Below, piece after piece: positions 2,101-62,844 of a DNA stretch of 64,000 nucleotides. Origin of the DNA: Imbricaverruca yamaguchii (Eukaryota > Arthropoda > Thecostraca > Neoverrucidae); the NCBI GenBank assembly GCA_034440575.1, contig JAOTOL010001196.1:1-64000 (forward strand). The letters run 5' to 3'. The notes below the pieces were generated by a model. It was not told the DNA's origin, ran no database searches, and saw only the letters and a program-made list of their open reading frames with translations. The number at the start of each line of letters is the position of its first letter. Positions within the stretch are counted from its first letter, which is position 1. The position numbers were made by a program, and so were the translations under genes.

Positions 2101-2232
2101 TCATATTGTCCAGCTCCATGTTGTCATATTGTCCAGCTCCACGTTGTCATATTGTCCAGCTCCATGATGTCATATTGTCCAGCTCCATGATGTCATATTG
2201 TCCAGCTCCATGTTGTCACATTGTGCAGCTCA
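2101..2232. repeat. 23-bp tandem repeat before the first visible TDRD5-like exon
   Basis: About six units of TCATATTGTCCAGCTCCATG+TTG. Ends some 20 bp before the exon acceptor. The unit contains CAGCT, similar to the acceptor-exon border GCAGCTGAC. Confidence 0.85.
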
Positions 2233-2256: not shown

Positions 2257-2588
2257 CTGACAAACGAGCCGCTGCCGTACCGTCGACTGGGCTTCCCGAC
2301 CGTCGAGGAGTTCCTGCTGTCGGCCACGGACGTGTGCCAGTGTCGGCGTCTGCCGACCGGCCAGCTCCTGCTGCTGCCGTCTGCGACCCCACCACCGCGC
2401 ACGTGCGCAAGATGGTGGAGCGCAGTCGGAGGCCGCGCCAGACGGCCGGCGGCCGCGCCAGTCGCGTCAGTGGCGGCGCCAGTCGCGTCAGTGGCGGCGC
2501 CAGTCGCGCCGGTCGGCCGTGCGCGTCGCCCTGCCTGCCGCCCGACGCCCGCGCGTCCGTGCTGGCCTTGCTGGCGCTCCACCCGGGG
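2257..2588 (+). CDS. TDRD5: TDRD5-like exon: LOTUS1, repeat linker, start of LOTUS2
   Basis: The acceptor lies in GGCGCAGGCAG at 2247-2256. The frame reads [19 protein letters not shown], the characteristic core of a LOTUS (OST-HTH) domain. After a one-base frame shift near 2370-2385 it continues as [18 protein letters not shown], the end of LOTUS1. A linker with a 21-bp in-frame repeat (SRVSGGA) follows, then the first LOTUS2 helix ([14 protein letters not shown]) up to a donor at 2589 (GTGGGT). The exon ends in phase 0, as the next exon needs. The frame shift is either an assembly indel or decay. Confidence 0.72.
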
Positions 2589-4605: not shown

Positions 4606-7600
4606 ATTATATATATTATATATACTGTTGTGCACCGAACTGAGCCTCCCACAGTGTCGTGACCGAGTTGTCAGTAAGTGCCAGTGCCGGTGCCGGGGGC
4701 AGCAGTTGTGTGTCTGACTAAGCCTCCCACTGTGTCGTGGCTGAGTTGTCAGTAAGTGCCAGTGCCGGTGCCGGCGGCTGCAGTTATGTGTCTGACTAAG
4801 CCTCCCACTGTGTCGTGGCTGAGCTATCGGTCAGTGCCGGTGCCGGGGGCAGCAGTTGTGTGTCTGACTGAGCCTCCCACTGTGTTGTGACTGAGCTATC
4901 GGCCAGTGCCGGTGCCGGGGGCAGCAGTTGTGTGCCTGGCTGAGTCGCTGTGCCTAAGGTGTCGCAGTGACAGTCAGTGACAACGTCTGCGTCGAGTGGA
5001 GTTGCATGATTTCGACTCTCCCGGAGCGTTCGACACTGGCGCATGCACCTTGGTCAGCCGCCATATCAGACAAGAAAGATCCTACTTGTGCAAGAATAGA
5101 CGTGCGCGATACCTATGCAATGTAATAGTTGGTGCTATCGGGGTTTATGGGCAAGCTGTATGAGTTAATCAGCGCCCACATGTAATGTGATAATGTGCAC
5201 CACACTATTGTTATATGTACGTTATTTATTAAAGTAGTCTAGTTAGTTAGTTATTAGGGATTTATGGCGCATTGACTATTTTTGTTATGTAGCGCCCATA
5301 AAGTATGGTCTAGAAATAAGGTGACCTGTGGCCAGATGTGTAGTGGTCAGAGTCTAACCCGCGGCTCGCGGTGACGCAGGCGCCGGCGCTGACCGCTCAG
5401 CTGCGACCCGACCGGCAACAAATAACCGGACGACAGGAGATGCGCCGCCCTCCCGACCGCCCACACAGACGTTTGTATCCTGTGAGTGCCCCTGCCGGTC
5501 CACCCGACCGTTCAAAGCACAGGAATACGCGCCCAGATCCAGGGTGCGTGCCGATCACCAGCATATGTAGACCGATATCAAACCGTATGCTAATTGTCAT
5601 GCCCGTGAGCAATGATGCGGAAAATTGAGTCGTGTGAAGTTGTCGGATAATTAATGCAGAAGGATTGTGGAACTGGAAAGTCGTGCCAACATGTTCTTGC
5701 TGCGTTAAGACGCTTCAGTAGTTGCCTTCAGCGGTTTAAAGAAAACGAAAAAAAACTGATTATGGGCGCTTGGTCGAATCCCAGTCATTTCATGTTATTT
5801 TATCGCCATTTCAGAACATGAATTATAAATGGGCGCTGTATGACCGAAGCAGTCGATGCGCCCCTAAGCCCAAATAACCAACCAACATGGATTCGAAAAG
5901 TAAAAAAATGTTCGGCATTTCTCACGTCTTCCAGTGTCCTTTGACGAGGCGTCATGTCGGCGCATATTGTCGTATGCGTCCTGCTCGCCTGACCGGCGAC
6001 TGGGTAGATGCCGAGTGCACCCGCTGACCCACGCTGTTGCTTCCAGATGAAGACTGCGTGGAAGAGTTGACCCAAGCCTTGCGAGCGGTGCTGCAGAAGC
6101 AGGAGGATCCTGTGAAGGCCACCGAAGTCATGGAGCTATACCGGGTAGGAAGCACAAGGATGAAGCCTGTCACTATGCAATGAGCTTACACTTAATCAAG
6201 TGGGCTTGCAGCGGGGGAGGGTGCGGTAGCTCAGTTGGTAGAGCGTCGGACTCTTGATCGCAAGATTGTGGGTTCGAATCTCGCAACTGGCGGCATCCAC
6301 CGAGTCCACCCGCGACCAATCGGTGTGAGAGGTTGGCGACGCTATATGACCTTACGGTTGAATGCATCGTAAAAGAGCCCAAGGTTAATAACCCAAGGGT
6401 TTGCAGTGGGAAAATGTTAAATCCCGTGCGCACTAATGACCGGGATACGTAACTCTCTGCATGAACACAAATTTGATTATCATGGTGACGGGGTTTTGGT
6501 TTTGGAATTGTGCAGTGGTCTTAGGTCATTTTGTTTCTGACTAACTGCTTTCAGCTATATAACATGTGGTACTGAAAACAACTGAAACCACCACGACGAC
6601 TGCTATGCTGTGTTTCATTTTGTATTGTGTTTCCTGTCAAAACTGAAAGTGCTGCTGCACGTTAATTTGTGTTGATGTTGGCGGATAGTATTGTATGTGT
6701 CGTGTAGCAAGGCTCTTGGCCACCTCCAAAGACTCCAACCCTGACCACCTCCATGGGCGCTAAATGACCTCGTAGCCGGCGCGCCCCTTAAGGCCAAGTC
6801 ATCAATCAATCATGCGTGTCCAACTATATAATTAGTTGCACCGCACCGTGGCAGAGTCGTTTCAAGTCAGCAATGAGGAGAGTTCAGGGTGGCGCCATGT
6901 TCTGTAGCTGTATGTAGCGCAGGGTTGGATATGTGCTTTGGCCCAAAGTATTTTGTTAGTATAGTTGTTTCAGTTCCCAGCTCGAATAATTTTACTTTTC
7001 AGGTTTTTCATACTCTCTCAGTAGTTTTAGGTTAAACCAGTCGGCTTGCGAGAGAAGTAGGTCGGGCGGAGTTCGTCGTCGAGCAGCACCATTCAGCCGG
7101 CAGGGGGTATGCGGCGGCAGCTCTCACACAGCCGTGGTGTAACCCAACGTCTGGTGCGGCAGCGGCAGCACGGCCGCAACCTTGACCTGGCCGCCTACGG
7201 CTTCACGGGCGTGCTGGGCGCGCTGGCGTCGCTGGGCCCTCCGTTCCAAATGGAGAAGCGAAACGACGAGTGGCACGTGTCGCTGCAGCGGGAGGATGCC
7301 GAGTCATCGCCCGACGGCCAACTTCCAGCTGGTCTCCGTCCCAGCCAGCCTGGCACAGGTCAGCGGGCCAGCCAGCCCACCACAGGTCAGTGGGCCAGCC
7401 AGCCTGGCACAGGTCAGTGGGCCAGCCAGCCTGCCACAGGTCAGTGGGCCAGCCAGCCCGCCACAGGTCAGTGGGCCAGCCAGCCTGGCACAGGTCAGTG
7501 GGCCAGCCAGCCTGGCACAGGTCAGTGGGCCAGCCAGCCCGCCACAGGTCAGTGGGCCAGCCAGCCCGGCCACAGGTCAGTGGGCCGACCAGCCTGTCAC

Positions 7601-10600
7601 AGGTCAGTGGGCCAGCCAGCCCGCCACAGGTCAGTGGGCCAGCCAGCCCGCCACAGGTCAGTGGGCCAGCCAGCCTGTCACAGGTCAGTGGGCCAGCCAG
7701 CCTGTCACAGGTCAGTGGGCCAGCCAGCCTGTCACAGGTCAGTGGGCCAGCCAGCCCGCCACAGGTCAGTGGGCTGACCCGTACCTCTCACACCCGACTG
7801 GTCTCTGTCCCAGCCCAGCCCGCCACAGGTCAGCGGGCCAGCCAGCCTGTCACAGGTCAGTGGGCCGACCCGTACCTGCCGTGGTGCTCTCGCACTGGCT
7901 GCCGCTGCTGACCACTGCAGTCGATGCGTCCTTAAGCCCCTCGAAATAAATACCTGATCAGCTGTGGTGGTCATGTTGCACGTCTGTCGTGGTCGGACTG
8001 GGCGGCAGATACCCCACCACACCATCACTCCGTCATACCCTGACACCACGGACATGAAGTCGCCTAGCACCATGTCCTTTTGTCTTCTTTTTGTTTTATT
8101 TCACTGCGCACCAAATCGCCTGATGTTCCTGCATTCAATAATTGTATGCCGTTGTTTTTGTCAACTTGTCTATTTTGTCTACTTTTAAAAAGTTCATGGA
8201 GCACTGCAAAGTCATCCAGCCATGCCAGACATCCTTCTTTATGCTCTTAAGAAAACAGGGGTTACGCCAAGAGGTTAATCAGGGTTACTCCGAATAGATG
8301 TTGCTCTCTACGCGACCCGCCATGACTTTCCTTGGGTTCTCTATGTTTGGCTTAGTTATATGAAATGAGCACATTTATTGATGAAGGAGAGCACGACAGT
8401 TATTCCGAGCATACGCTAAGCCTTTGCACCTCTTGTGGATTTCGTGTTTACGTTTTTTGTAGCATTCAATTGTTTTACAAGGCATGTTGCTCTGAGCTGA
8501 TAAGAACCGACTCATTGGCTGCGGAAGCACATTTCTACCCCGGTTGATATCAATGATCAGAATCCTTGATTATTCCGACTTATTCTGGGTAAAGCGAGAA
8601 AAAAAGTGGCAAGTACTTCGACATTTATTGATGGGTCTTATGAAGGGCTATGAACTAAATGAGACGAAGCAAAATCCACCTAGCATGTCAATCACGTGAG
8701 AAAGCCTAAAGTTGGACCGCTGTCATATTTGTCATAGTTTTTGCTTTACCCAGAGTGAGTCCGAATAATTAAGCATTTTGATCATTGACTCATTATCGTT
8801 GAATTATTTTTCCACTGTTTGGTTCTTGAAATATTATCGAGGAATATGTTTCAAAGACCAGGCGTTTATAGGTGAATCAACCAATCGGGAACTATGTCAA
8901 GACGTTAGTGTTCAGTGCTGGCCATGTCAAGTGTGACCATGTCAAGTGTGGCCAAATGGGCGCTAAATGACCTTGTAGTCGGCGCGCCCTTAAGCCAAAA
9001 TCAATCAATAAATCAGTCAAGTGTGGCCTGTCTGATGCCCTGATGTCAGGTGTGGTCTGCCTGATGCCCTGGTGTCGTCGGGTGTGGTCTGCCTGATGCC
9101 CTGTGTCGTCGGGTGTGGTCTGCCTGATACCCTGGTGTCGTCGGGCGTGGTCTGCCTGATGCCCTGGTGTCGTCGGGTGTGCCCTGTTTAATGTCCTGGC
9201 GTCCGATGTAACCCTTGGTGCCTGTTGTCAGGCGTGCCCTGTTTAATGCCGTGTTGTCGTCAGGCGTTGCCGTGTTGGTGCGCGCTGGTGACGCGGGATG
9301 CGGCCTGTTCCAGCTGTTGCTGTGGAGAAGGCCGATGAGGCGGCTGACACCCCCGACGTCGACTGTGCCGGCGGGGCCGAGCCGACCGGCGACGACCAGC
9401 CGCTGCGCTACACCGTGCAGCGGCTGCAGTGGCTGGAGGGGGGAGCGCAGGTGGCCACCGAGGCCGGCTACCCGCTGCTGGAGGTGGTCGTCACGCACGT
9501 GAGTGTCGACCGCTGCTGGTGGCACTGCCGTGTGCACTCTGTCGCTGTTGTGCCGGACACTTCGTATGGGCGCTAAGTGACCTGGTAGTCGGCGCGCCCT
9601 TAAGCCCAAATAATCAATCAACCGGACACTTCGTGCGTCGCCTGTGGGGTGAGTGGGTGCGATGGCGTGGGGAGGTGAAGGCGAAGGACGTTGTGGCTAG
9701 CCTTGATGTGGACGTCCAATGACTTCAGCGTCCTGTGATTCCAAGATTTGAGTGAGAGCCAGCACGTGATAGAAGTTTGTTTGAACCTACTGGAAAAGGT
9801 TTAGATTCCTTGCATTGGTTTCCATGAAATATGCCAGTAGTCATATGTAGTTGTTGATGGCAATCTTAACACACCCCACGTTTGCATATTTTCGTGACTT
9901 ATTTTGTGTTTTTCACAGTTCAATGCCATTATATAACAAGTTGTCGGCTTCTTTCGACGCCATTGCGGTTTATGACGTCTTGAATTCTCCCGACTAAGCA
10001 TTCATTGAACCCTCCACAGGCTAATTGAAATAGTTGTCGACGCGTCCTAAAGCCCAAATAACTAACTAACTAACAGGCTAATTGGACCCTTGGAACCTCC
10101 ACTACAAAGGATGGATGCCAGGCACTGCATGCCTACTGCCGTGCACAGTGGTTGTAATGCACTGCAGGTGTATATTACGCTCGCCAGATCCCATGTCGTG
10201 ATGTCAGTCTGGAGCCAGTGCTGGCGTTCACACGTGCTGTGGCCTGCACGGTGTTCAGGTGGTGTCTCCGAGCGAGTTCTACTTCATCGTGTCGCCGGCG
10301 CCGGAGCAGCTGAGCCGGCTGGACGAGCGGATGGCCGAGGTGTACGGCTGCCGTCCGCCGCCGTCCGACCGGCAGCCGACCGTCGGCCGCCCGCTGGCCG
10401 CCCGTACCGCTGCTGGGTGGAGACGCGCCCTGCTGCTGGGCGTGGTCGTCAGCCAGGCCAAGGTGAGAGGCGAAAGCGGGCGGCTGACTATCGGCCGCCC
10501 GTGTACCGCTGTCGGCTGGAGCGCCACGCGCCCTCCTTCTGGGCGTGGTCGTCAGCCAGGCCAATGTGAGAGGCGAGACGGCTGACTATCGGCCACCCGT

Positions 10601-13600
10601 ACCGCTGTCGGCTGGAGACGCGCCCTCCTTCCTGGGCGTGGTCGTCAGCCAGGCCAAGGTGAGAGACGGACGACTGCGATGCCTGGTGGGACTGAAGACA
10701 AGCTGCACGGCGAGCCTGTCGGGTGGGGTTACAGACAGGCCCGTCAGAACCAGAAGTGGGGTGTGATCAGTGATCAGGACCAGGAGACGGGGAGGTGGGG
10801 AGAAGGTTCGGTCAGTGATCACGTCATGGCTGGTGTGGCGAGGGGCGCCTCTCCGTTGATTGTGCACCAGTGCATTGTATGGCGTCGTGGGTGATGGCTT
10901 TTCAGATGTGACGGATTCTGATATGTGGTGAAAATGCATTGTCATTTGGAACGTCAAGCGAGCCCGAGTCTGTAAGGTGTGCTTCGGTACATTGTACCGA
11001 CTCGGGGCACCGTGGGCTAGATATGTGGTGCATCAGCCTGTTACCTCCAGCTTGTTCCAGAACTTGAATATTACGACCTTCTTCTTTCAGGCGCTACATA
11101 GTCGATGTAGTCGATGCGCCCTAAAGCCCTAATGACTAACTAACTAACTAGCAACATTTCCGGCATCAGGCCCGTGTGTTCTCCGATTATGTCTATAGTC
11201 CGAACGGCCATGCAGTTGAAGCTGTGCAGGCACGAGGTGATGCTCGTCGTTCTGTGCAGGTGTACCTGGTGGACACGGGCGCCACGCTCATGCTGCCGCT
11301 CACCCTCGATCCACCCGCTCAAGCCGAGCCTCATCGAGCCTCCGGTCATGTGTCATCTGGTGAGTCAATTGCAACACAAGGCTCTGTTCTCCGCCACCGT
11401 CGTGCCGCCGGCTATGAGCGGGAACGTTTTTTGGTCCTGTCACACATTCCACTCAGGTTCGTTTTATTAGTGCTTTGTGAGCATAGCAGCAGTCGTTGCG
11501 TACTACAGACGATGTGACTAATTTCTCCGTCGAATAGGATGCTTACATTTTTAGCTGTGAGTGGCACCGCTCTGGTGCTCCCTGACGATTAGCCACGCCT
11601 TGTTGCCCCCCACCCCCAACCCCACCCCAGGAGTTCAGATCTGCTAGCACACCCAGTGATGCTCATGGTCATACGCAACGCAGCCCCTCGCAATGACACC
11701 GCTCCTAACGGCACCTGTTCACCCCTTCCCAGCATTGCTACCAATCCCAGTCATCCTGGCTCCTGTTCACCCCTTCCCAGCATTGCTTCCAATCCCAGTC
11801 ATACTGCCTCCCTGTTCACCCCTTCCCAGCATTGCTAGCAATCCCAGTCATGCCGGCCCCCGGCTGCCAGCCGGGACTGAGTACTGCAGCGCGGCTGATG
11901 GTCGCTCCGGCTGGCCTCCGCCGACGGCCGTGTCTGTGAGCCTGGTCAGCGTTGCCGTGTGTTGCAGGGCTCACTGGCGAACATCGAGCCGGCGCTGAAC
12001 CAGTGGAGTGACGCCGCCGGCCGTCTGTTGCGCTCCCTGACCGCCGACGGCGCCGTCCTGATGGCAGTCGTGCTGCGGCAGACCGAGGTCAGTGGTGTAT
12101 ATATATATATATACACACATATGCACTTATGTATGTGTGTATTCATGTAAGCATGTGTATGTATGTATGTGTGTGTGTGTGTATGTATGTATGTACATAT
12201 ACATTTATATACATATACGTTTATATACATTTATATACATATACATTTATATACATATATATACATGTATATCTACATATATATGCATATATACTATATA
12301 TATATATATATCAATACACATAGTTGCACAACATCTATTGTTCCAATCTATAAATATGCTTCTTCATACTACTGCTTTGCATAGGTTGCCATATTGCACT
12401 GGTAAATCAGTCGGCAGTCTATTCCATGCTTCAGTTAGAATATGTTGAAATGATGGCCACAGAGCAGCGGCGGACTGAGTTAGGTCGTCAGCAGCGCCCT
12501 TCTACTCCCCTGTCTGTGGCACTGTAGAGATGGATGGTGCACCCCTTCCGATCCCCTGGCTGTGGCACTGTAGAGATGGAGGGTGCACCCCTTCCGATCC
12601 CCTGGCTGTGGCACTGTAGAGATGGAGGGTGCACCCCTTCCGATCCCCTGGCTGTGGCACTGTAGAGATGGAGGGTGCACCCTTTCCGATCCCCTGGCTG
12701 TGGCACTGTGGAGATACAGGGTGCACCCCTTCCGATCCCCTGGCTGTGGCACTGTAGAGATGGAGGGTGCACCCTTTCCGATCCCCTGGCTGTGGCACTG
12801 TGGAGATACAGGGTGCACCCCTTCCGATACCCTGGCTGTGGCGCTGTAGAGATGAAGAGTACACACATCCCGATCCTCACACAACGGCACTGTAGAGACG
12901 GAAGGGAACACCGAGCACTATTTCCGGTCCACTGCCGACGAAACTGTAGAGATGAAACTTTTTCGCACTTTTTGCACCCGTTCCGGCTCCCTATCGATGA
13001 CACTAGAGCCGGAATGGATACGAACGGCCTCCTGTCTACAGCGCTAAAGGTGCTGACATTGCGCCCATCCCGGTCCCATGCCGACCCACTGCACACACGG
13101 AGGAATCACCCAACACCCTGCCGGTCCCCTGTCAACGGCATTGTGGGGAGGGGACAGCACCCCTTCTGGTCTCACGCCCAGGTCGCTGTGGGGATCAAGG
13201 CGATGCTCGCAGCCCCTTTCCAGTCTTCCGGTGTGGAAGGAAGCCATGACACAATAGCTCCACATGAAGCTTCCGAAGCCAATCGAATGTGCATAAGCAG
13301 CTTTTGTTTTCTTGCTACGGAATGGATTTGCATCTCTATCCTCACAGCTCTACCGACTCTAACGTCACGCCGGCAATACAGCCGTGTCACCACCCCCGGC
13401 TGTCCCGGTCATGCCTCCAGCTCGGCTGTGCACATACCAACCCACCTGGGCCGCTGTCAGACCTGGGTCGACTGATCTGACGGGCGTGACTCGGGGAAGG
13501 ATGGGCGAGGCACGAATACACACGCCCATGGCGATACGTCTTGGCTTGTGTTTGGCTTCAAGCTCCGTTTCCGACGTCCTGGCACTTTGTTGCGGGTCCC

Positions 13601-16600
13601 GCCGCAGTTGCATGGCGGCTTCCCTCACCCGTGAGCGTCGGTAGTGCGCGCTTCCCTGGGCTGTTCGTCAGTTTGTTCGCCTGGTGTTGCGCTGGACCGT
13701 CGAAGGGTCCGGTTGAGGGCAGGGGTGGTGGCGTCCCTCGGTGCGTCTGGCCTGTTGTACTGTACTGCCAGTGGGCGAGGCTGACGGTCCGATGGTGACG
13801 CCTCCCCGGCCTGCCTGTATGGCTCGTTTTACCGACTGTGTGTGTGTGCTCAGTGTTGGAGCGAGCTGCTGCTGTGCGACACGCGCTCGGCGACCGACGT
13901 GCACGTGGCCGACGAGCTGGTGGCGGCCGGACACGCCCGGGTGTCGGACGCGGCCGAGAGCTCGCCGCCGGCGCCGCTCCAGACGCCCCGCCCGCCCGCG
14001 CTGCACAACATGTACGGTCTGCTGGACGACAGGTGGCGGCCGCCGGCTCACCAGAGCCGCCTGCCACCCGACGGCGCCGAGCCGACCTCACCGGCCAGGA
14101 GGTCAGTGGCAGCGTCGGCAGTACTCCCGGGGTCAGCGGCAGCGTCGGCAGTATCCCCGGGTCAGTGGCAGCGTCGGCAGTACTCCCGGGGTCAGCGGCA
14201 GCGTCGGCAGCACCCCCCGGGTCAGTGGCAGCGTCGGCAATACCCCCGGGGTCAGCGGCAGCGCCGGCAGTACCCCGGGGTCAGTGGCAGCGTCGGCAGT
14301 ACCCGGGGTCAGCGGCAGCGTCGGCAGCACCGCTCAGGTCAGTGGCAGCGCCGGCAGTACCCCCGGGTCAGTGGCAGCGCCGGCAGCACCGCTCAGGTCA
14401 GTGGCAGCGCCTCGGTCGCAGCCGGCTACCAGGTTAGTGGCAGCGCCGGCAGCACCGCCTGTGGGGTCAGCGGCAGCGCTCGGTCAGTGGCGCACCGCTC
14501 AGGTTAGTGGCAGCGTCGGCAGTCGGGGTCAGTGGCAGCGCCGGCAGCACCGGCTCAGGTCAGTGGCAGCGCCGGCAGCACCGCCAGGTCAGTGGCAGCG
14601 TCGGCAGTACCCCGGGGTCAGTGGCAGCGCCGGCAGCACCGCTCAGGTCAGTGGCAGCGCCGGCAGCACCGCTCAGGTCAGTGGACAGCGTCGGCAGCAC
14701 CCCCAGGTCAATTCGGCAGCCCGCTGGGGTCAGTGGCAAAACGCTGGCTTAGCACCCTCAGGTCAGTGGCAGGGCGGGGTCAGTAGCGCACAGCCAGTGG
14801 CAGCACCCGGTCACTGGGCAGCCCCGGGGTCAGTCTGACAACACACTCCTGGCCAGTAGCAGCACCCTCACGGTCAACTGGGCAGCGGGGTCAGTCTGAC
14901 AACACACTCCTGGCCAGTAGCAGCACCCTCACGGTCAACTGGGCAGGGTGCAGTCTGACAACACACTCCTGGCCAGGCAGCAGCACCCTCACGGTCAACT
15001 GGGCAGCGGGGTCAGTCTGACACACACCCTGGCCAATAGCAGCACCCTCACGGTCAACTGGGCAGCGGGGTCAGTCTGACAACACACTCCTGGCCAATAG
15101 CAGCACCCTCACGGTCAACTGGGCAGCGGGGTCAGTCTGACAACACACTCCTGGCCAGTAGCAGCACCCTCACGGTCAACTGGGCAGCGGGGTCAGTCTG
15201 ACAACACACTCCTGGCCAGTAGCAGCACCCTCACGGTCAACTGGGCAGCGGGGTCAGTCTGACAACACACTCCTGGCCAGTAGCAGCACCCTCACGGTCA
15301 ACTGGGCAGCGGGGTCAGTCTGACAACACACTCCTGGCCAGTAGCAGCACCCTCACGGTCAACTGGGCAGCGGGGTCAGTCTGACAACACACTCCTGGCC
15401 AGTAGCAACACCCTCACGGTCAACTGGGCAGCGGGGTCAGTCTGACAGCACACTCCTGGCCAATAGCAGCACCCTCACGGTCAACTGGGCAGCGGGGTCA
15501 GTCTGACAACACACTCCTGGCCAGTAGCAGCACCCTCACGGTCAACTGGGCAGCGGGGTCAGTCTGACAACACACTCCTGGCCAGTAGCAGCACCCTCAC
15601 GGTCAACTGGGCAGCGGGGTCAGTCTGACAACACATCCTGGCCAGTAGCAGCACCCTCACGGTCAACTGGGCAGCGGGGTCAGTCTGACAACACACTCCT
15701 GGCCAGTAGCAGCACCCTCACGGTCAACTGGGCAGCGGGGTCAGTCTGACAACACACTCCTGGCCAATAGCAGCACCCTCACGGTCAACTGGGCAGCGGG
15801 GTCAGTCTAACAAAGCACTCCTGGCCAGTAGCAGCACCCTCACGGTCAACTGGGCAGCTGGGTCAGTCTGACAACACACTCCTGGCCAGTAGCAGCACCC
15901 TCACGGTCAACTGGGCAGCGGGGTCAGTCTGACAACACACTCCTGGCCAGTGGCAGCACCCTCACGGTCAACTGGGCAGCGGGTCAGTCTGACAAGAAAA
16001 GGTTGCTTTATGGCCATGAATAATGGCAGTACCCTGGCGGTGCATGGTTATTTTACTGCTGTCGTTTTCGCGTTGTCTCCATGTTCTTGCTCTTCTGGTG
16101 CAGTTTTGTTCCATGTATCCCTTTATTGTAATCTCACCATTGGAGCCTCTATGTCGCTATACGCTCCATAGTTTTCTTGTTGAAGATAATCGAGCGTAAC
16201 CGAGTATCACATTTGGCAGCATTGTTCAATCTGCGCAGGACGTAACTGTTGGTAAATCAATCGCCCGCGATACGCATCGACTAGCATTGTCACGGCATCA
16301 GGTACTTCGACAACAAGCTGGGGGGCGCGAAATTATAGAATTTTCCCTGCGTCCTTGAATAATCGCATGTTTGTGGTGGAAGTGCTCTTAAAGCCAAGCA
16401 ACAAATAACTCAGCTTAATTTTATATAAAGCAAAACCATGTTTGGACAGGTGATGATAATGTTCTGGATCGAATCCTCCTATGACAAAGTTTGAAAAAAA
16501 ATATGCTGTTTCTGGATGTTGTCGTCGGTAATGTTATCCTCTTAAGAAGACTATCACTACATATTTCACTTTTCGTGGCTGCATGGTGCTGCGTAGCAAT

Positions 16601-25670: not shown

Positions 25671-31818
<6,148 letters not shown>

Positions 31819-44500: not shown

Positions 44501-47500
44501 GTCAGTGTCAGCGCAGACTGGGTACGTGTCAGTGTCACCGCAGACTGGGTACGTGTCGGTGTCACCGCAGACTGGATACGTGTCAGTGTCAGCGCAGACT
44601 GGGTACGTGTCAGTGTCACCACAGACTGGGTACGTGTCAGTGTCACCGCAGACTGGGTACGTGTCAGTGTCACCGCAGACTTGGTACGTGTCAGTGTCAC
44701 CGCAGACTTGGTACGTGTCAATGTCACCGCAGACTAGGTATGTGTCGGTGTCACCGCAGACTGGGTACGTGTCAGTGTCACCGCAGACTGGATACGTGTC
44801 AGTGTCACCGCAGACTGGGTACGTGTCGGTGTCACCGCAGACTGGGTACGTGTCAGTGTCACCACCATACTGGGTACATGCCGGTGTCACCGCAGACTGG
44901 GTACGTGTCAGTGTCACCGCAGACTGGGCACGTGTCAGTGTCACCACAGACTTGGTACGTGTCAATGTCACCACAGACTGGGTACGTGTCGATATCACCA
45001 CAGGCTGGGTACGTGTCGGTGTCACCACAGACTGGGTACGTGTCGATATCATCACAGGCTGGGTACGTGTTGATGTCACCGCAGACTGGGTAGGTGTCAG
45101 TGACACTGCATACTGGGTAGGTGTCAGTGCCATCACAGACTGGGTACGTGTCAGTGTCACCGCAGACTGGGTACGTGGCAATGTCACCATAGACTGGGTA
45201 CGTGTCAGTGTCACCATAGACTGGGTACGTGTCAGTGTCACCATAGACTGGGTACGTGTCAGTGTCACCACATACTTCGGGCACGTCAATATCATTGCAG
45301 GTTTGGTGCATGTCGATACCATCCCAGATTTTATGCGCAACAATACCTATACATACTTCATGTCTCATTAACACCATCGATTGGTACGTGAATAGGCGCG
45401 CTTACATGGAAATTCCCTCTCTGTAGGTCTCTGCATTTGTGAACCCGACCATTGCAGACCACGAATGTTCTAGAACATGGCATGCAACTGTGGTGATCTC
45501 TGCCTTGTCCATGTTCAAGAACCTGACGTTGCATTCTGCCTCTGATAGATGACTGATCTTTCTTAAGCCCCCGTAAAATTATTGCATTGATGGTCCTCTT
45601 AACTGACTATATTTTCGAAAACGAGATTTTCCTCCGCTGCATGTTAAAAGCTAAGCCCCTCGACTGCAATTGTTAGAAATGCCACCTACATGAAGAAGAC
45701 AGTATGCATGCAAAGTATTGCATTACATTATGCCATCTATTTAAGCTTAGTGACACTTTTTGTTCCGCGAAACAAGAGCTCGTTCCTCTTTCCAGGGAGG
45801 CCGTGCATCTGGCCAGACGGCACCCGGATGGCTCAACGATCCGCCTTCTGTGACAAGTACGAGGGCTTCGGCAACCTCTGCAACTGCTCCAACCCGGACC
45901 CTGTGGCGCGACCATTCCGACCGGTAGGGGTTCCGAGGTCACTGAACTGCTCTGATCCTGACCCTATGGGGCGACCATTCCGACCGGTAGGGGTCCCGAA
46001 CTCACTGAACTGCTCTGACCCTGGCACTGTGTATCGGCCATTCCGACGGGTAGGGGTTCCGATGTCACTGAACTGCCCTGATCCGCACACCGTGGAGTGA
46101 CCCTGCTTGGTAATAACGGCTCTGGGATCATCCAGTGATTGATGAACATGTGTGAGTGTAGTGCTCGACCCAGCGTTGAGGTGCAATCGCACGACTTTTC
46201 AGACTCGTTTACACGCGCACAATGTGTGGCGGGCGCTTCCTGCGCCTTCTGACGTCACAAGTGTGTGAGTTGAGTCACCATGTCGCGCCGATCGCCATTG
46301 CGGGCGCGCCACCTTGGGTTCGCAATACGCTAGCGTTGCTACGCCAGTCGGCAAAGGCCCCAGTTGCCAACGGGAACAGCCCTCGAACACGCGTCGCGCA
46401 TCTGGTAGAAGTTAAGCTTATCTGTGGTCATGCCTGGATGTGTTCTCCAGAAATAAAAGCCACTGCATGCACTCCGTAAAAAAACTTACTACATTCCTCC
46501 TGTGTTTGGTTACAACTCGACACCTTGATGGACGCCAGTGCCGAGACTTGGAGACATGCTCATAGGCGGATCCAGCATTTTCATGAGAGGCGGGTCAACG
46601 GGTCTTCATGAGGGGCATGAGAGTCTTCGGCTGAAAATCCGTTGAGAGCGCGAAGGGGTGGTGCTGTCTATCATACTGGAGGGTCATCTATTGCTGGTCA
46701 GCGAGGCGCCACCTGTTCATGGAAGTTGGATATGCCCCTAGTGCTCTCTCCTGTATCCGTCCCTGCACGTGCTGTCCCTGCCACCCTGATGCCTATCCTC
46801 GCCCTCACCGATACAAAGCAGCATAAGCGGCCGTCGCCCAACAGGGGCGAAGTCAGTCCACGTGATGGCCACAGCGTCAAATTCGAAATCTGCCCATCAC
46901 CGCTAAAATGACAGATGCCAGCACCACAGAGACCAAACACGGCTGATGTCATCACAACAGAGGCCAAACACGGCTGATGCCATCACAACAGAGACCAAAT
47001 ACGACTGATGCCATCACAACAGAGACCAAACACGGCTGATGTCATCACAACAGAGGCCAAACACGTCTGATGCCATCACCACAGATGCAAAACACGGCTG
47101 ATGCCATCACCACAGATGCAAAACACGGCTGATGCCATCACAACAGAGACCAAACACAGCACGGCTGATGCTATCACTGCTCACGACATACTTAAGAAGT
47201 TTTGTTTTGCTACAATCTTAGCTTATCAAGCTTATCGCATCGTTCGCAACTCCACTCTTCCTTGCAATGCGTCGGACATTCCTTCCAATCACTCACTCGC
47301 TGAATTTGAATTCCCTAAACATATTGCAGGCGACGGTTTTTCGCGTCAGGATTCGATCAGCCTGCTTTTCATCTCATAACACAATCTCAGTGGGAGTAAG
47401 AAACGCTTACTTCTGAAAATATGTCGCTCAGTTATTTTTTAGCATCGTGGCTGTCAGTGTACCGTTGTGTTCGAACGAAATGGAAGTGGGTGCCCAAGGT

Positions 47501-59500: not shown

Positions 59501-62500
59501 TGTGACGTGCAGTGGTGAATGATGCATGATGTGACGTGCAGTGGTGGAATGATGCATGATGTGACGTGCAGTGGTGAATGATGTGTGATGTGACTTGCAG
59601 TGGTGAATTATGCGTGATGTGATGATGTGACGTGTATCGTCTATTATCCCCTTAGTGCTTCCAATGTACAAGTCGGCGAGTTAATTAGGGTTGTGGTGTA
59701 AATCATTGTCCAGCGTTGTTGAACTATACCTGGTAGTTGTTACCACTAGACCTTTGCTTCCACTGTACGGAACGTGCGTGCACCTTATCAGTGACCTTGA
59801 CCGATTCTGGCAATTTAGCATAATTAGTGCATTCAGGCAGAGGCGCATACAAGGACCCTCCCACTCATCATCCACCAATATACGAGATCAAAGAGGAAAT
59901 TCTGAGATGTTCAACACGCAAAACAATGCATTTTCGGCGCGTTTCGCGCGCCGGAAGCTTTCTGTTTTATCACATTGTTTTGGCGTCCCCCCCCGCACAA
60001 GAAAAACCTGGCTACGCCACTACAGTTAGGTCGGGGCCATGCGCCCATATTCGACGGAGAAACCCACTATAGACGACTGTAATCTGTTCCGGTTGTGGTT
60101 CAACCACGTCTGCAAAACCTCTGCGGACAGCCATAAACACTGGGGTTCAATTCAATTGCAGTGCTTACGGTGCCTCACCCTACGGGGGGTCTGCCAGCTG
60201 TTCCTCAGGTGTGCCATGGATGAGCTCACACGTCTTATCGGAGGTCGTCAGTTGTTCCTCAGTGTGTGCCATGGATGAGTCTCACGTGTTTTATGGATGA
60301 GCTGTTCCTCAGTGTGCTAAGGATGAGCTCACAGTTGGTCCCATGGGAGTCTGTCTCCGCCCCATGGGAGGTCTGTCAGCTGTTCCTCAGTGTGTGCCAT
60401 GGATGAGCTCACAGTGCCTCGGCCCATGGGAGGTCTGTCAGCTGTTCCTCAGTGTGTGCCATGGATGAGCTCACAGTGCCTCGGCCCATGGGAGGTCTGT
60501 CAGCTGTTCCTCGTCGCCATGTCAGTGTGTGCCATGGATGAGCTCGCAGTGCCTCGTCTTATGGGAGGGTCTGTCAGCTGTTCCTCAGTCACTCCGCCAG
60601 TGTCAGTGTGTGCCATGGATGAGCTCACAGTGCCTCGGCTCATGGGAGGTCTGTCAGCTGTTCCTCAGTGTGTGCCATGGATGCGCTCACAGTGCCTCGG
60701 CTGGGTTTTTTTTCAGTGTGTGCCCATGGGATGGTCTCGCAGCTGTTCCTCAGTGTGTGCCATGGATGAGCTCACAGTGCCTCGGCCCATGGGAGGTCTG
60801 TCAGCTGTTCCTCAGTGTGTGCCACGGATGAGCTCACAGTGCCTCGGCCCCATGGGAGGTCTGTCAGCTGTTCCTCAGTGTGTGCCATGGATGAGCTCAC
60901 AGTGCCTCGGCCCATGGGAGGTTTGTCAGCTGTTCCTCAGTGTGTGCCATGGATGAGCTCACAGTGCCTCGGCCCAGGTCTGTAGCTGTTCCTAGTGTGT
61001 GCCATGGATAAAGATTCACAGTTCCTGGGAGGTCTGTCAGCTGTTCCTCAGTGTGTGCCATGGATGAGCTCACGGTGCCTCGGCCCATGGGAGGTCTGTC
61101 AGCTGTTCCTCAGTGTGTGCCATGGATAAGCTCACAGTGCCTGGCCCATGGGGTCTTCTTTTTTTGCAGTGCCGCGGCCCATGGGAGGTCTGTTCCTCAG
61201 TGTGTGCCACGGATGAGCTCCAGTGCCTCGGGCCCAGGGGGATTTTTTCTCTGTTTTTCTCTCTCCGCCAGTGTCAGTGTGTGACATGGATGTGCTCGCC
61301 GTGCCTTGGTCTATGGGAGTTCTGTCGGCCACTCCCTAATTGTGTGTGCCACGGATCTGTGTACAGTGCCCCGGTCTGCAGGAAACCTGTCGTCCCTCCT
61401 AATGTGTGTGCCACGGATCTGTGTACAGTGCCCCGGGTCTGTCATCCTCATTGTGTGTGCCAAGGATCTGTGTACAGTGCCCGATCTGCGGGAAATCTGT
61501 CGTCCACTCCTCATTGTGTGTGCCAGGATCTGTGTACAGTGCTCTGGTCTGCAGGAAACCTGTTCGTCCATTCCTCATTGTGTGTGCCACGGATCTGTGT
61601 ATGGTGCCCCGGTCTGCGGAAACCTGTCGTCAACTCCTCATTGTGTGTGCCACGGATCTGTGTACAGTTGCCCCCGGTCTGCAGGAAACCTGTTCGTCCA
61701 TTCCTCATTTTGTGTGCCACGGATCTGTGTCAGTGCCGGTCCAGGAAACCTGTTCCTCATTGTGTGTGCCACGGATCTGTGTACAGTGCCCCGGTCTGCA
61801 GGAAACCTGTCGTCCACTCCTCATTGTGTGTGCCACGGATCTGTGTACAGTGCCCCGGTCTGCAGGAAACCTGTCGTCCACTCCTAATTGTGTGTGCCAC
61901 GGATCTGTGTACAGTGCTCTGGTCTGCAGGAAACCCTGTTGGTCTTTTGTTGGGGGTGCCACGGATCTGTTACAGTGCCTCGGTCTGCAGAAACCTGTCG
62001 TCCACTCCTCATTGTGTGTGCCACGGATCTGTGTACAGTGCCCCGGACTGCAGGAAACCTGTTCGTCCACTCCTAATTGTGTGTGCCACGGATCTGTGTA
62101 CAGTGCCCCGGTCTGCGGGAAACCTGTCGTCCACTCCTAATGGTGTGTGCCACGGATCGTGTCAGTGCCCCGGACTGCAGGAAAGCCTGTTCGTCCATTC
62201 CTCATTGTGTGTGCCACGTATCTGTGTACAGTGCTCTGGTCTGCAGGAAATCTGTCGTCCACTCATTGTGTGTGCCACGGATCTGTGTACAGTGCCCCGG
62301 ACTGTGTCGTCCATTCCTCATTGTGTGTTTGTCTCTGAAGTGTTTTCTGGGCTACCACAAAATCACTCGGAAGTCCTTAATATTCTTACCATATTTCTGT
62401 GTACAGTGCCCCGGACTGCGGGAAACCTGTCGTCCATTCCTCATTGTGTGTGTCCGCCCCGAATTTGTTTCAAGTGCTCGGTCTGCAGGAAACCTGTCGT

Positions 62501-62844
62501 CCACTCCCTAATTGTGTGTGCCACGGATCTGTGTACAGTGCCCCGGTCTGCAGGAAACCTGTCGTCCATTCTTCATTATGTGTGCCATGTATCTGTGTAC
62601 AGTGCCTCGGTCTGCGGGAAATCTGTCGTCCTCTTCATTGTGTGTGTGCCACGGATCTGTGTATAGTGCCCCGGTCTGCAGGAAATCTGTCGTCTACTCT
62701 TCATTGTGTGTGCCACGGATGTGCTTCCAGTGCCTCGGCCTCTGGGACTTGGACGTGCGTGGTGAACACAAAGGAATCTGGAGATTCTTCATAAACGGCA
62801 ACCCGGTGCTGGTAGTGGGCGTACCGTACTCGGAGTACTCGTAA
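38287..62844 (+). CDS. POMGNT1: POMGNT1-like O-mannose beta-1,2-GlcNAc-transferase gene (about 14 exons)
   Basis: Exons 38287-38362, 39688-39794, 41382-41564, 43762-43984, 45796-45923, 47570-47640, 49425-49569, 52003-52121, 53565-53678, 54649-54736, 55315-55501, a duplicated pair (56460-56579 with 56939-57017, and 58316-58435 with 58794-58873), and 62731-62844. Phases fit throughout apart from a few one-base breaks. Family GT13: the Golgi enzyme adds GlcNAc beta-1,2 to O-mannose, as on alpha-dystroglycan, using UDP-GlcNAc and Mn2+. Landmarks in family order: a FAM3/ILEI-like stem with YSYVKLDG and GLQLLVLHPVTGATML, a Cys-rich link (CDKYEGFGNLCNC), AVLGGDRGTYLYRMLQTLL, LIVLEDDL (metal-binding DxD equivalent), [32 protein letters not shown], and the C-terminal GLWDLDVRGEHKGIWRFF. 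About 585 residues against 660 in human. Unlike the human type II protein, it starts almost directly with a hydrophobic segment. Confidence 0.88.
38460..38536. repeat. (TA)n microsatellite
   Basis: TA tract with one TATGTATGTTTT break, in intron 1 of the POMGNT1-like gene. Confidence 0.95.
38752..39468. repeat. 18-bp array, about 40 units
   Basis: Units of ACTGTACTGAGCCGAAAC with variants (GAGCTGGAAC, GAGCTGTAAC, CAGCCGAAAC). Eighteen bases is six codons, so frames stay open on both strands. Intron 1 of the POMGNT1-like gene. Confidence 0.93.
39688..39794 (+). CDS. POMGNT1: POMGNT1-like exon 2: start of stem domain
   Basis: Acceptor TTCTTGTCAG, donor TAC|GTGGGT. Reads NGQPAGGVDYKG and SSFRIEVAAARNYSYVKLDG, aligning with the 'vev-s----vyVavDG' strand pair at the start of the POMGNT1 stem domain. 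35 codons plus two bases; phase 0 end. Confidence 0.8.
39795..41381 (+). other. POMGNT1: Intron 2 of the POMGNT1-like gene
   Basis: No repeat array or gene recognised; ordinary AT-leaning intron with a TTAATTAATATTAATTA block near 40865. Confidence 0.6.
41382..41564 (+). CDS. POMGNT1: POMGNT1-like exon 3: stem domain
   Basis: Acceptor GCCGCGCGCAG, donor CAG|GTAGGC. 61 intact codons: IHYDEHNDFSRRGLQLLVLH, PVTGATMLRRFNPGHY, KAGLTDIMQLLQRVQAG and RIVVLCTQ. Matches the stem-domain pattern 'rGihv-VLnq-TG-vm--r-Fdty' and 'gRvLic-v'. The donor and the preceding ACCCAG are duplicated 17 bp on. Confidence 0.87.
41553..41650 (+). repeat. Duplicated donor followed by (CAGTCG)n
   Basis: ACCCAG|GTAGGCGTGTC occurs twice 17 bp apart (real donor at 41565), then GTCACAGTCGCAGTCACAG-type hexamers. 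Confidence 0.85.
41721..41886 (+). mobile_element. tRNA-derived SINE, family A
   Basis: GGCGACAAGTAGTCTAGGGG head, box B GGTTCGAGTCTC at 41774, body CTACTCTTCGCCCGCG and GAGAGATTGGCGACGC, tail CAATAACCAACCAACT. Lies in the intron after POMGNT1-like exon 3. About 80% like the copy at 47744 by eye. Confidence 0.8.
43545..43780 (+). repeat. POMGNT1: Acceptor and exon start of POMGNT1-like exon 4, copied twice upstream
   Basis: CCCTGCCGTCAG|TACGAAGCGT-CGTTCAGTCTGGAGGAGACG appears with exon borders at 43576, 43664 (TACGAAACACC) and at the real exon 43762. The first two go out of coding after GGCGCTCGTGACACG. (TGACC)n fills the gaps. Intron 41,890-43,545 before it shows nothing clear. Confidence 0.92.
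43762..43984 (+). CDS. POMGNT1: POMGNT1-like exon 4: end of stem domain
   Basis: Acceptor CCTGCCGCCAG. YEASFSLEETTRRYFSTMAP, YLSQIGAMSRYAMVARKDGG and SLAEGHVPRNVQTEPFEAVV match the family's 'DEGsFhLkdtAk--L--lGs----g-RdtwafvgrKGG'. The end is set by phase: the next exon needs phase 1, which GACTGGG|GTACCG at 43985 gives, and residue spacing to the next Cys-Trp then agrees with human. An earlier weak donor at 43946 also fits. The exon is flanked by copies of its own acceptor upstream and its own end downstream. Confidence 0.82.
43970..45270 (+). repeat. 27-bp array grown from the end of POMGNT1-like exon 4
   Basis: About 48 units of CCGCAGACTGGGTACGTGTC-AGTGTCA. The first partial units are the exon end GACCGCAGACTGGG|GTACCG. 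Open in all three forward frames. The remaining intron to 45795 shows nothing. Confidence 0.92.
45796..45923 (+). CDS. POMGNT1: POMGNT1-like exon 5: Cys-rich link to catalytic domain
   Basis: Acceptor CTTTCCAG. Reads RPCIWPDGTRMAQRSAFCDK and YEGFGNLCNCSNPDPVARPF, matching human '[32 protein letters not shown]' in cysteine spacing (four Cys). Donor ACCG|GTAGGG, phase 0. The frame remains open for two further 63-bp copies of the exon end, so a longer protein is possible if later donors are used. Confidence 0.88.
45881..46098 (+). repeat. 63-bp repeat of the end of POMGNT1-like exon 5 with its donor
   Basis: AACTGCTC-AACCCGGACCCT..CGACCATTCCGACCG|GTAGGGG occurs at the true exon end and twice more (GTAGGGG at 45987 and 46050). 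63 bp is 21 codons, and the frame is open until TGA at 46098. Confidence 0.92.
46905..47170. repeat. 31-bp array, about eight units
   Basis: CTGATGCCATCACAACAGAG-ACCAAACACGG units in the intron before exon 6. The stretch 46,100-46,900 holds a GGCGGATCCAGCATTTTC motif at 46565 and no gene. Confidence 0.88.
47570..47640 (+). CDS. POMGNT1: POMGNT1-like exon 6: first catalytic strand
   Basis: Acceptor GCATTTTTCAG, donor ACCG|GTCAGT. LPHNRTFPYPIAVLGGDRGT and YLY followed by a split Arg codon. This is the nucleotide-binding opening strand, 'vPVaViAgNRPnYLYRmLrsLL' in POMGNT1. NRT is a possible glycosylation site. Phase 2 end, completed by the first C of exon 7. Confidence 0.87.
47744..47922 (+). 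mobile_element. tRNA-derived SINE, family A
   Basis: GGGGACAAGTAGTCTTGTGG head, box B GGTTCGCGTCTC, body CTACTCTTCGCCCGCG and GAGAGATCGGCGACG, tail CCAATAACCAACCAATC. Intron after exon 6. The tail carries a small internal duplication (GTCGATG). Confidence 0.8.
47923..49424 (+). other. POMGNT1: Intron 6 of the POMGNT1-like gene, distal part
   Basis: A G10 run at 47943 and no other clear structure; no gene seen. Confidence 0.55.
49425..49569 (+). CDS. POMGNT1: POMGNT1-like exon 7: catalytic Rossmann-like core
   Basis: Acceptor TTGCCACTCAG, donor GAG|GTCAGT. The first base completes CGC (Arg), then MLQTLLPNRGLDKTRVTIFL, QDYHDHVMELADLLG and IRVVVKTSDDGEE. Aligns with '[20 protein letters not shown]' onward in POMGNT1. 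48 intact codons and phase 0 end. Confidence 0.9.
50308..50462. repeat. 15-bp array ACGTCACAGGACAAC
   Basis: About ten units, with CACTGGAGCAGA pieces at both ends. ACGTCA resembles a CRE half-site, but this is intronic. 49,570-50,300 shows nothing else. Confidence 0.88.
51205..51560. repeat. 87-bp array built from GGCGGGAGC pieces
   Basis: GGCGGGAGCTGAACCGACGG occurs at 87-bp spacing (51361, 51448, 51535), with inner ATGGCGGGA repeats. A possible minus-strand tRNA-like remnant lies at 51115-51190. Confidence 0.8.
52003..52121 (+). CDS. POMGNT1: POMGNT1-like exon 8: EDD metal-binding strand
   Basis: Acceptor TCTTTCCGCAG. Reads GNKITINMKNAIQTSFELFP, then EADKLIVLEDDLYVSPDFI. LEDDL is the GT13 equivalent of the DxD motif that holds Mn2+ and UDP-GlcNAc. 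Donor AG|GTGATG, phase 2. No frame damage, so the active-site exon is intact. Confidence 0.92.
52868..53187 (+). mobile_element. tRNA-derived SINE, family B
   Basis: GCCCCGGTAGCTCAGTTGG head, box B GGGTTCGAGTCGC, then a long body (GGCCGGGGACCCAGCTACC, GGATCGGGTGGTGGGGCC, CTTAGCAATAGAACCCTGG). The same body is found at 63611. Intron after exon 8. Confidence 0.82.
53565..53678 (+). CDS. POMGNT1: POMGNT1-like exon 9: LYCISAWND segment
   Basis: Acceptor TGGGGTCAG, donor ACAG|GTGGGT. YFEQTAPLLDEDITLYCISA and WNDNSYKHSSQDPALLY match '[20 protein letters not shown]' and 'TAEDPALLYR', one of the most conserved stretches of the family. One-base start, two-base end, both compatible with the neighbours. 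Confidence 0.92.
53679..54648 (+). other. POMGNT1: Intron 9 of the POMGNT1-like gene
   Basis: AT-rich, no repeat array, no coding signal. Confidence 0.6.
54649..54736 (+). CDS. POMGNT1: POMGNT1-like exon 10: PGLGW segment
   Basis: Acceptor TCGATTTCAG, donor GAG|GTAAGA. One base completes the Arg codon, then [20 protein letters not shown] and MPIWRPEWE. Matches '[20 protein letters not shown]' then 'W---e' in POMGNT1. Phase 0 end, 29 codons intact. Confidence 0.92.
55315..55501 (+). CDS. POMGNT1: POMGNT1-like exon 11: DWDMW and acceptor-binding segment
   Basis: Acceptor CTGCCTGCAG, donor CA|GTGAGT. VWDWDMWFRTDDVALYREC and IVPDVSRTYHFAYLGGHG are intact and nearly identical in pattern to human 'LWDWDMWMR' and 'RECIIPDVSRSYHFGI'. 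A base is missing near 55423 (CACGGTACAGC), after which YSFMQYQYYSDKSLNTLADV continues in the next frame. With that base restored the exon ends in phase 2 and joins exon 12. Confidence 0.87.
56460..56579 (+). CDS. POMGNT1: POMGNT1-like exon 12, first copy (frame broken)
   Basis: Acceptor TGTGTTTCAG, donor GAG|GTGGGC. MTFKDYTGSIYRLMRNSRLP, then YYTSCFDMLP, aligns with '[20 protein letters not shown]' and 'PCEDSFLPDTEG' of human. The frame fails at GCTCCCCCTACGG (about 56557-56568): a run of five C would need to be six to reach the expected PPTDDPE and end in phase 0. A homopolymer error is a simple explanation. Confidence 0.75.
56939..57017 (+). CDS. POMGNT1: POMGNT1-like exon 13, first copy (in-frame stop)
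   Basis: Acceptor GCATTTTCAG, donor ACG|GTGAGTG. Starts ERKKPYVVILEVKHAYK and then meets TAA (TACAAATAAGG), where the second copy has TACAACAAGG. One inserted base plus a substitution separate the two. The rest (MQNLLT) is readable in another frame. If the copies are real, this one is dead; if they are misassembled alleles, it is an error. Confidence 0.7.
57451..57507 (-). mobile_element. Truncated SINE tail, minus strand, duplication copy 1
   Basis: TTAGTTAGTTATTTTAGC, TTTAGGGCGCGTCGACCATG and CATATAGCGCCCATGATG. Reverse of the family A tail; duplicated at 59303-59360 as part of the segmental duplication. Confidence 0.6.
57500..57780. repeat. 29-bp array (duplication copy 1)
   Basis: GTGCAGTGGTGAATGATGTG-TGATGTGAC units. 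Copy 1 contains an extra GCCGGATGGCCGGCCAGC block near 57676, absent from copy 2. Confidence 0.85.
58316..58435 (+). CDS. POMGNT1: POMGNT1-like exon 12, second copy
   Basis: Acceptor TGTGTTTCAG, donor GAG|GTGGGC. MTFSDYTGSIYRLMRTSRLP, then a stretch read through to PPTDDPE without a stop. An extra G at CTCCGGGCTG is balanced by the same short C run as in copy one, so the exon is formally open, but about 14 residues in the middle are off-frame and the conserved Cys (CFDM) is lost. Confidence 0.75.
58794..58873 (+). CDS. POMGNT1: POMGNT1-like exon 13, second copy (intact)
   Basis: Acceptor GTATTTTCAG, donor ACG|GTGAGTG. ERKKPYVVILEVKHAYNKVA and MQNLLT with no break. Aligns with '[25 protein letters not shown]' of human. 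Phase 0 end joins TGC CTC GGC of the last exon to give NLLT|CLGLWDLDV. Confidence 0.78.
59303..59360 (-). mobile_element. Truncated SINE tail, minus strand, duplication copy 2
   Basis: Same sequence and place as the copy at 57451-57507. Confidence 0.6.
59370..59635. repeat. 29-bp array (duplication copy 2)
   Basis: Same unit as at 57500, with several one-base deletions. Confidence 0.85.
59835..60027. mobile_element. Possible short non-autonomous DNA element
   Basis: Starts GGCAGAGGCGCATACAAGGA and ends AACCTGGCTACGCCACTACA, an imperfect inverted pair of the kind found on small hAT-like elements. The interior has ATTTTCGGCGCGTTTCGCGCGCCGG. A related interior (TTTTCGCTACG, TTTCGGCGCGCTGAAAGG) follows a GAGGCGCAGCCAGGG motif at 26246-26370. 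Confidence 0.35.
60190..61300 (+). repeat. 62-bp array with copies of the last-exon acceptor
   Basis: About 17 units of GCCATGGATGAGCTCACAG|T-GCCTCGGCCCATGGGAGGTC-TGTCAGCTGTTCCTCAGTGT-GT. CACAG|TGCCTCGGCC matches the border of the real last exon, CCAG|TGCCTCGGCC at 62731. Confidence 0.92.
61300..62730 (+). repeat. 64-bp array running into the last exon
   Basis: About 22 units of GCCACGGATCTGTGTACAG|T-GCCCCGGTCTGCAGGAAACC-TGTCGTCCACTCCTCATTGT-GTGT. The final unit, GCCACGGATGTGCTTCCAG|T, carries the acceptor of the terminal exon. Confidence 0.93.
62731..62844 (+). CDS. POMGNT1: POMGNT1-like terminal exon
   Basis: Acceptor TGTGCTTCCAG, 37 codons and TAA at 62842-62844. CLGLWDLDVRGEHKGIWRFF, then INGNPVLVVGVPYSEYS, against human '[20 protein letters not shown]' and 'VVGVPASPYS'. 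It ends sooner than human, which has a Pro-rich tail. Its acceptor and first 20 bases are the seed-like unit of a 2.5-kb array immediately upstream. ATTAAA at about 63208 could serve as a poly(A) signal. Confidence 0.92.
   Translation, partial: CLGLWDLDVRGEHKGIWRFFINGNPVLVVGVPYSEYS

What the first reader, a model, noticed from the sequence alone, without database searches (positions are those of the whole stretch)
2101..62844. Minisatellites seeded by splice junctions in two unrelated genes
At least eight arrays contain a real exon border in their unit or start exactly at one: donors at 7359, 10463, 14102, 41565, 43985 and 45924, and acceptors at 43762 and 62731; the stop region at 18093 is similar. 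The unit includes exon bases, the GT or AG, and intron bases. This is hard to explain by random slippage and leaves rows of decoy splice sites beside the true one. Either a mechanism starts duplication at splice junctions, or selection tolerates arrays only when each unit still splices. I know of no described system that does this.
Basis: partly seen in the sequence, partly recalled or inferred. Interest (0 to 1): 0.88.

Follow-up and report, generated by a model that had tools for sequence, protein, structure and literature searches.

The report
Mirage-type repeats copying exon borders
In this stretch of an unidentified animal genome, eight repeat arrays run across predicted exon-intron borders of two genes, more than chance placement gives; such "mirage" repeats are already described in amphioxus, and they likely arise because local duplications at an exon edge leave the original splice site and reading frame intact.

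Summary
The observation largely holds. The window carries a TDRD5/7-like (LOTUS-Tudor) gene and a POMGNT1 gene. Eight minisatellites cross their predicted borders: donors 7359, 10463, 14102, 41565, about 43985, 45924; acceptors 43762, 62731. Four borders are gapless against human POMGNT1; 10463 lies in a Tudor domain aligned to TDRD1. At 6 of 43 borders, exon-edge letters are copied into the adjacent intron beyond shuffles. At 14102 exon copying is not demonstrable. At 7359 eight donor copies fit equally.

With related arrays merged, 8 of 22 intronic arrays cross a border against 1.6 expected, or 1.8-2.3 weighted for GC. The window was picked for this pattern, so these odds flatter it.

Novelty fails: minisatellites spanning exon-intron borders are described in amphioxus as "mirages" (PMC3087553, PMC3902484; passages). 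A junction-directed mechanism is not needed: unit breakpoints scatter relative to the junction (KS p = 0.27, low power), one array straddles a stop codon, and the two arrays found inside coding sequence have units divisible by three. Frequent duplication of GC-rich exon-edge DNA filtered by selection fits best, but does not explain the whole excess. The species was not identified.

The parts
7341..7866 (+). 27-bp array at the donor of exon A4 of the TDRD5/7-like gene; first copy carries 18 exon letters plus GTCAGCGGG
   Evidence: TRF; 18 near-matching cores, GT intact in 18; exon 20-mer copied (0 of 200 shuffles); first 8 of 18 donor copies in phase, so exact donor ambiguous
10396..10676 (+). 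103-bp array at the donor of the Tudor exon A6 (intron starts 10463); about 67 exon letters per unit, 3 copies
   Evidence: junction lies in a Tudor domain
14100..15995 (+). about 30-bp array starting at the donor of exon A9 (14102), continuing into a 61-bp array that looks like a degenerate derivative
   Evidence: border by phase only; exon copying not significant; derivation of the 61-bp part read by eye
41555..41648 (+). 17-bp array (2.4 copies) with the donor of POMGNT1 exon B3 (intron starts 41565), followed by short GTCGCA-type repeats
   Evidence: border gapless against human POMGNT1
43547..43801 (+). 88-bp array with the acceptor of POMGNT1 exon B4 (exon starts 43762), 40 exon letters per unit, 3 copies
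   Evidence: border gapless
43972..45276 (+). 27-bp array at the donor region of exon B4 (about 43985), more than 40 copies of ACTGG|GTACGT; start extended from TRF's 44016 by eye
   Evidence: exact donor uncertain
45882..46102 (+). 63-bp array at the donor of exon B5 (intron starts 45924), 42 exon letters per unit
   Evidence: border gapless
60180..62738 (+). 62/64-bp arrays ending at the acceptor of exon B14 (exon starts 62731); 28 near-matching cores, AG intact in 25; two TRF arrays joined and start extended by eye
   Evidence: border gapless
18088..18278 (+). 38-bp array whose first 8 nt end with the stop codon of the TDRD5/7-like gene
2100..2231 (+). 23-bp array just upstream of LOTUS exon A1; possible ninth case, candidate acceptor at 2229
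   Evidence: acceptor choice by eye, not verified
2451..2508 (+). 21-bp (in-frame) array inside coding exon A1
   Evidence: reading frame chosen by eye
31296..31507 (+). 27-bp (in-frame, HTNCSGTGP) array inside an open reading frame of a third gene candidate
   Evidence: that the frame is a gene is not verified

Best explanation
These are mirage-type minisatellites: arrays whose repeat unit contains a predicted exon-intron border, likely born by ordinary local tandem duplication at GC-rich exon edges and kept because the exon-abutting copy of the splice site would still serve. Shown: the arrays, exon-edge letters copied in six of them, and their excess over shuffled placement in this window. 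Inferred: a duplication that straddles a donor, an acceptor or a stop codon leaves the original reading frame whole, so it passes selection and can then grow in the intron or 3' region. Duplications wholly inside coding sequence would survive mainly when their unit is a multiple of three. Inferred: splicing uses the first donor or the last acceptor, and the other copies are ignored decoys.
For: Borders supported by homology and phase. Exon letters copied at 6 of 43 borders. 8 of 22 intronic arrays cross a border against 1.55-2.31 expected. GC is 0.63 in exons and 0.48 in array-free introns, and 18 of 21 arrays lie at 0.51-0.73, so weighting for GC raises the expectation. Exon overhang scatters (KS p = 0.27). 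The same behaviour at a stop codon; both arrays found in coding sequence have units of 21 and 27 bp. Published precedent in amphioxus, with RT-PCR said to suggest normal splicing (PMC3087553, passages; PMC3902484, passages).
Against: GC weighting explains only part of the excess (expected at most 2.5 against 8; 3.7 in the most generous shuffle). In two donor arrays (7341, 14100) the donor motif is the best-conserved stretch of the unit, which could hint at selection on splicing; in the other three border profiles it is not (percentiles 0.78, 0.81, 0.29), and the anchors used there favour the motif. The true acceptor at 62731 is richer in pyrimidines than 23 of 26 exact copies. One stop-codon case and two coding arrays are few. 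No RNA was available.
Confidence: 0.68

Rival explanations
1. A junction-directed process (for example breaks or replication stalling tied to splicing or U1 binding) would start duplication at splice sites.
For: Excess of border arrays remains after GC weighting: 8 against 1.84-2.31 expected; six of eight are donors, and the TRF array at 14100 starts 2 nt before its donor.
Against: Breakpoints are not fixed to the junction (KS p = 0.27 with hand-read and with TRF overhangs; n = 8); the stop-codon array has no splice site; 14 of 15 non-border units, intronic and intergenic, show no sense-strand donor excess over shuffles (the exception, 14808 at 0.02, may itself derive from a donor).
Confidence: 0.12
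2. Selection would maintain the arrays because redundant splice sites or long repeats help splicing or allow variable protein lengths (for example the first eight in-frame units at 7341).
For: GT intact in 18 of 18 cores at 7341 and 20 of 20 at 14100, AG in 25 of 28 at 62731 (which counts only near-matching cores); donor motif is the most conserved part of two units.
Against: The other three border profiles show no such focus; units of 103, 17, 88 and 64 bp would shift the frame if one decoy were used; homogenisation alone also keeps letters intact.
Confidence: 0.1
3. Chance plus choice of window: a repeat-rich genome (arrays cover 22% of the window) will now and then show a cluster of border arrays.
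For: Arrays cover 26% of intron bases, and only 8 of 50 borders (16%; 7 by TRF alone) are covered, below that rate; the window was selected for this pattern.
Against: Placement nulls that respect coding sequence give 0.9-3.7 expected, and exon letters are copied at six borders.
Confidence: 0.1

Closest known systems
Amphioxus 'mirage' minisatellites (Adh3, globins BflGb6 and BflGb9, troponin C, PGBD5)
   Same: Tandem units of tens to about 160 bp that span an exon-intron border, at donors or acceptors, leaving copies of AG/GT signals beside the true one (PMC3087553, PMC3902484; passages).
   Different: Here eight lie in two genes of one 64-kb window with up to 40 or more copies; species unknown; splicing, instability and haplotypes not tested.
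Intron gain by tandem duplication of AGGT proto-splice sites (Rogers model as cited in PMC3087553; potato RdRp case PMC4974935, search listing only)
   Same: Local duplication that carries splice signals.
   Different: There a duplicated segment yields a new intron; here existing introns hold the copies and no new intron is shown.
Ordinary intronic and coding minisatellites
   Same: Unit lengths, GC richness and degeneracy look ordinary (from general knowledge).
   Different: Arrays placed without regard to borders would include them less often than here.

Membership tests
Mirage minisatellites | Repeat unit spans an exon-intron border and copies exon letters into the intron | tested here: met
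   6 of 43 borders by exon 20-mer test; 7 of 50 borders inside TRF spans
Mirage minisatellites | Both donor and acceptor borders can be duplicated | tested here: met
   acceptors 43762 and 62731, donors 10463 and 45924
Mirage minisatellites | Copies retain GT/AG signals but splicing is normal | not testable with these tools
   near-matching copies retain signals; no RNA data
Mirage minisatellites | Length instability between haplotypes or somatically | not testable with these tools
   one assembled sequence only
Mirage minisatellites | Host is a cephalochordate (the published cases I saw) | tested here: inconclusive
   protein searches timed out; genome search did not complete
Junction-directed duplication system | Breakpoints fixed relative to the splice site | tested here: not met
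   overhang fractions fit uniform, KS p = 0.27, n = 8; low power

The most novel reading that the evidence does not exclude
Outside cephalochordates, an animal genome duplicates its splice junctions into minisatellites through a process biased to junctions themselves, making decoy splice-site rows a general genomic habit and a live source of new introns.
Probability: 0.12. Interest if true: 0.75.

Novelty: new member of a known kind. Interest (0 to 1): 0.42.

Why it matters
If the host is not an amphioxus, mirages are not a cephalochordate oddity, and a genome this dense in them (eight in two genes) would let one test how spliceosomes choose among like donor or acceptor copies and whether such arrays seed new introns.

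Tried and rejected
A general donor motif in non-border arrays was tested on 15 units and found in one. Uniform selection on GT/AG was tested on five border profiles and seen in two. Pyrimidine content: the three copies at 43762 are equal; the true acceptor at 62731 (0.59) exceeds 23 of 26 exact copies, equals one and is below two, a weak hint that decoys there are poorer sites. The core search for the 43985 donor found only itself, so it says nothing about that array. Three of six protein pieces given to Pfam (exons A2, A3, A4) had no match.

Rows dropped or merged before the counts: microsatellites; AT-rich rows at 12182-12318 (periods 10, 16, 26) and 57092/58946 (period 28); arrays outside the introns of the two genes (2100, 2451, 18088, 20040, 20869, 23330, 27788, 29128, 31296); one copy of the duplicated block (56846 and 57551 rows); 14100 merged with 14808; 41555 with the rows beside it; 60361 merged with 61335, start moved to 60180. 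One search puts the AT-rich rows back (one copy of the duplicated one), giving 22 arrays. Exon A1's end and exon A4's start are estimates. Three border coordinates in the earlier scripts (3952, 9316, 56580) are off by 1-2 nt, which puts two of the 17 donors behind the donor scores out of register; one search uses the corrected coordinates with the same outcome.

Full report
What the window is. The + strand carries two multi-exon animal genes. Gene A (about 2229/2257 to 18095) encodes LOTUS and Tudor domains (OST-HTH E 2.3e-5, TUDOR E 4.3e-11; exons A2, A3 and A4 gave no Pfam match) and is TDRD5/7-like (the name is recalled from domain order; the nearest solved chain is TDRD1). Gene B (38287 to beyond 62840) is POMGNT1: its joined exons match human POMGNT1 at E 1.4e-86 over query residues 16-427, with Pfam ILEI and GNT-I. 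A third gene candidate lies between them (signal-peptide-like exon at 25671, reading frame ending 31818).

Are the borders real? Exon phases close across most introns used (and my reading of them; the end of A1 and start of A4 are unknown). Across B3/B4 (41565 and 43762) and B5/B6 (45924) the alignment to human POMGNT1 has no gap; the same holds at B14 (62731). The A6/A7 border (10463) sits inside a Tudor domain that aligns to TDRD1 with a one-residue gap close by. The B4 donor (about 43985) is less certain: a 5-residue gap lies there, and the phase-fitting GT scores -2.3 against a mean of 6.9 for 17 non-array donors, while the stronger TGG|GTACGT copies begin 14 nt later. At A4 (7359) phase fits, but so do the next seven copies: the first 8 of 18 exact donor copies are in one phase and the coding frame stays open to 7777. 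14102 fits by phase only.

Do the arrays carry the border? TRF spans include 7 of 50 listed borders; the B4 donor is the eighth when partial units are counted by eye. An independent test asked whether the last or first 20 exon letters recur within 1.5 kb of the adjacent intron. At 6 of 43 borders they do, beyond all or all but one of 200 shuffles (7358, 10462, 43984, 45923, 43762, 62731); the next best are at 8 of 200. At 14101 they do not (30 of 200; 52 of 500 in a second test), and at 41564 the 10 copied letters are too few. So exon letters are shown in six arrays, a small TRF array covers a seventh border, and the eighth array starts 2 nt before its donor.

Is it more than chance? Covered borders (8 of 50) are fewer than expected from intron coverage (26%), so raw coverage is no evidence. 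The right question is how often an array tolerated in an intron reaches a border. With each array shuffled in its own intron, 0.9 crossings are expected with a 20-nt overhang (0 of 20000 shuffles reach 8), 1.6 with one unit (1 of 20000), 2.7 with 70 nt (48 of 20000) and 3.7 with 103 nt (372 of 20000); placing arrays in any intron gives 1.7 and 2.6 (0 and 12 of 4000), and a one-unit seed gives 1.3 (0 of 20000). With related arrays merged and a one-unit seed placed on the collapsed sequence, three versions agree: 21 arrays, expected 1.55-2.51; 20 arrays, 1.46-2.37; 22 arrays with AT-rich rows put back and coordinates corrected, 1.55 uniform and 1.84-2.31 weighted by GC. In the last, P for 8 or more is 4e-5 to 8e-4, and for 6 or more 0.003 to 0.02. 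The window was chosen because of the pattern, so these figures overstate the surprise.

Mechanism. Three things speak against a process that starts at the splice site. Unit breakpoints scatter through the unit and fit a uniform spread (KS p = 0.27, n = 8, low power). That holds with overhangs of 28-67% of a unit, three of them read by eye, and equally with TRF's own starts at 14100 and 62731, which give 7% and 13% (the 43972 start stays by eye). An array of the same style straddles the stop codon at 18088-18278, where there is no splice site. And the two arrays I found wholly inside coding sequence have units of 21 and 27 bp, both multiples of three. This is what a filter predicts: duplications arise often, more in GC-rich exon-like DNA (exons 0.63 GC, array-free introns 0.48), and survive where the coding message is left whole. 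The filter and GC together still do not explain the full excess; I leave that open.

Decoys. Near-matching copies keep their signals: GT in 18 of 18 cores at 7341, 20 of 20 at 14100, 3 of 3 at 10463 and at 45924, 2 of 2 at 41565; AG in 25 of 28 at the B14 acceptor and 3 of 3 at 43762 (which counts only cores with up to four mismatches; the 43985 probe found only itself). Full-unit profiles show the signal as the best-conserved stretch in two arrays (7341, 14100) but not in the other three border profiles (percentiles 0.78, 0.81, 0.29), so a general selection on the copies is not shown. The true acceptor at 62731 is richer in pyrimidines than 23 of 26 exact copies. Which copy is spliced cannot be told from DNA.

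Compared with what is known. Ebner et al. 2010 (PMC3087553; [quoted passage not shown] floridae and B. lanceolatum as "mirages" with units of 10-72 bp and two further loci, note AG/GT signals in many copies, RT-PCR suggesting regular splicing, length instability and an unclear mechanism, and propose intron gain from them. The PGBD5 paper (PMC3902484; passages) adds PGBD5 and troponin C. The original Adh report is not held. The structures here match that description in anatomy. In the paper searches I noticed no such report outside amphioxus; I read the listings (cut at 15 and 10 rows) and opened only the two papers named, so that is a limited search.

Species. Not identified. GC near 0.5 and several GTCAGT donors do not look to me like amphioxus, but that is recollection, not a test. 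If it is amphioxus the finding is already known; if not, it is a new host for a known kind.

Noticed in passing
55962-57824 and 57821-59667: Head-to-tail duplication of 1.85 kb at 95.3% identity holding POMGNT1 exons 12 and 13; the first copy of exon 13 carries an in-frame stop. Real duplication or a false haplotype duplication in the assembly.
   Followed up: partly
31296-31507: In-frame 27-bp array (HTNCSGTGP repeats) in a third gene candidate with a signal-peptide-like first exon at 25671.
   Followed up: partly
6766-6786, 8969-8989, 9579-9599: Copies of a SINE-like element (GACCTYGTAGYCGGCGCGCCC core); other tRNA-like SINEs seem to lie near 6220, 41730, 47740, 52870 and 63600 (by eye).
   Followed up: partly
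20869-22418, 23330-24623, 27788-28286: Large minisatellites outside the two genes; their relation to any exon of the third gene candidate is unknown.
   Followed up: no
exons near 2400, 3840, 11310, 55430, 56560: Apparent single-base frameshifts in conserved exons (by eye), suggesting a long-read assembly with uncorrected indels.
   Followed up: no
donor sites of both genes: GTCAGT is a common donor hexamer here (5 of the 23 listed, plus one GTCAGC), unusual for animals as far as I recall.
   Followed up: no
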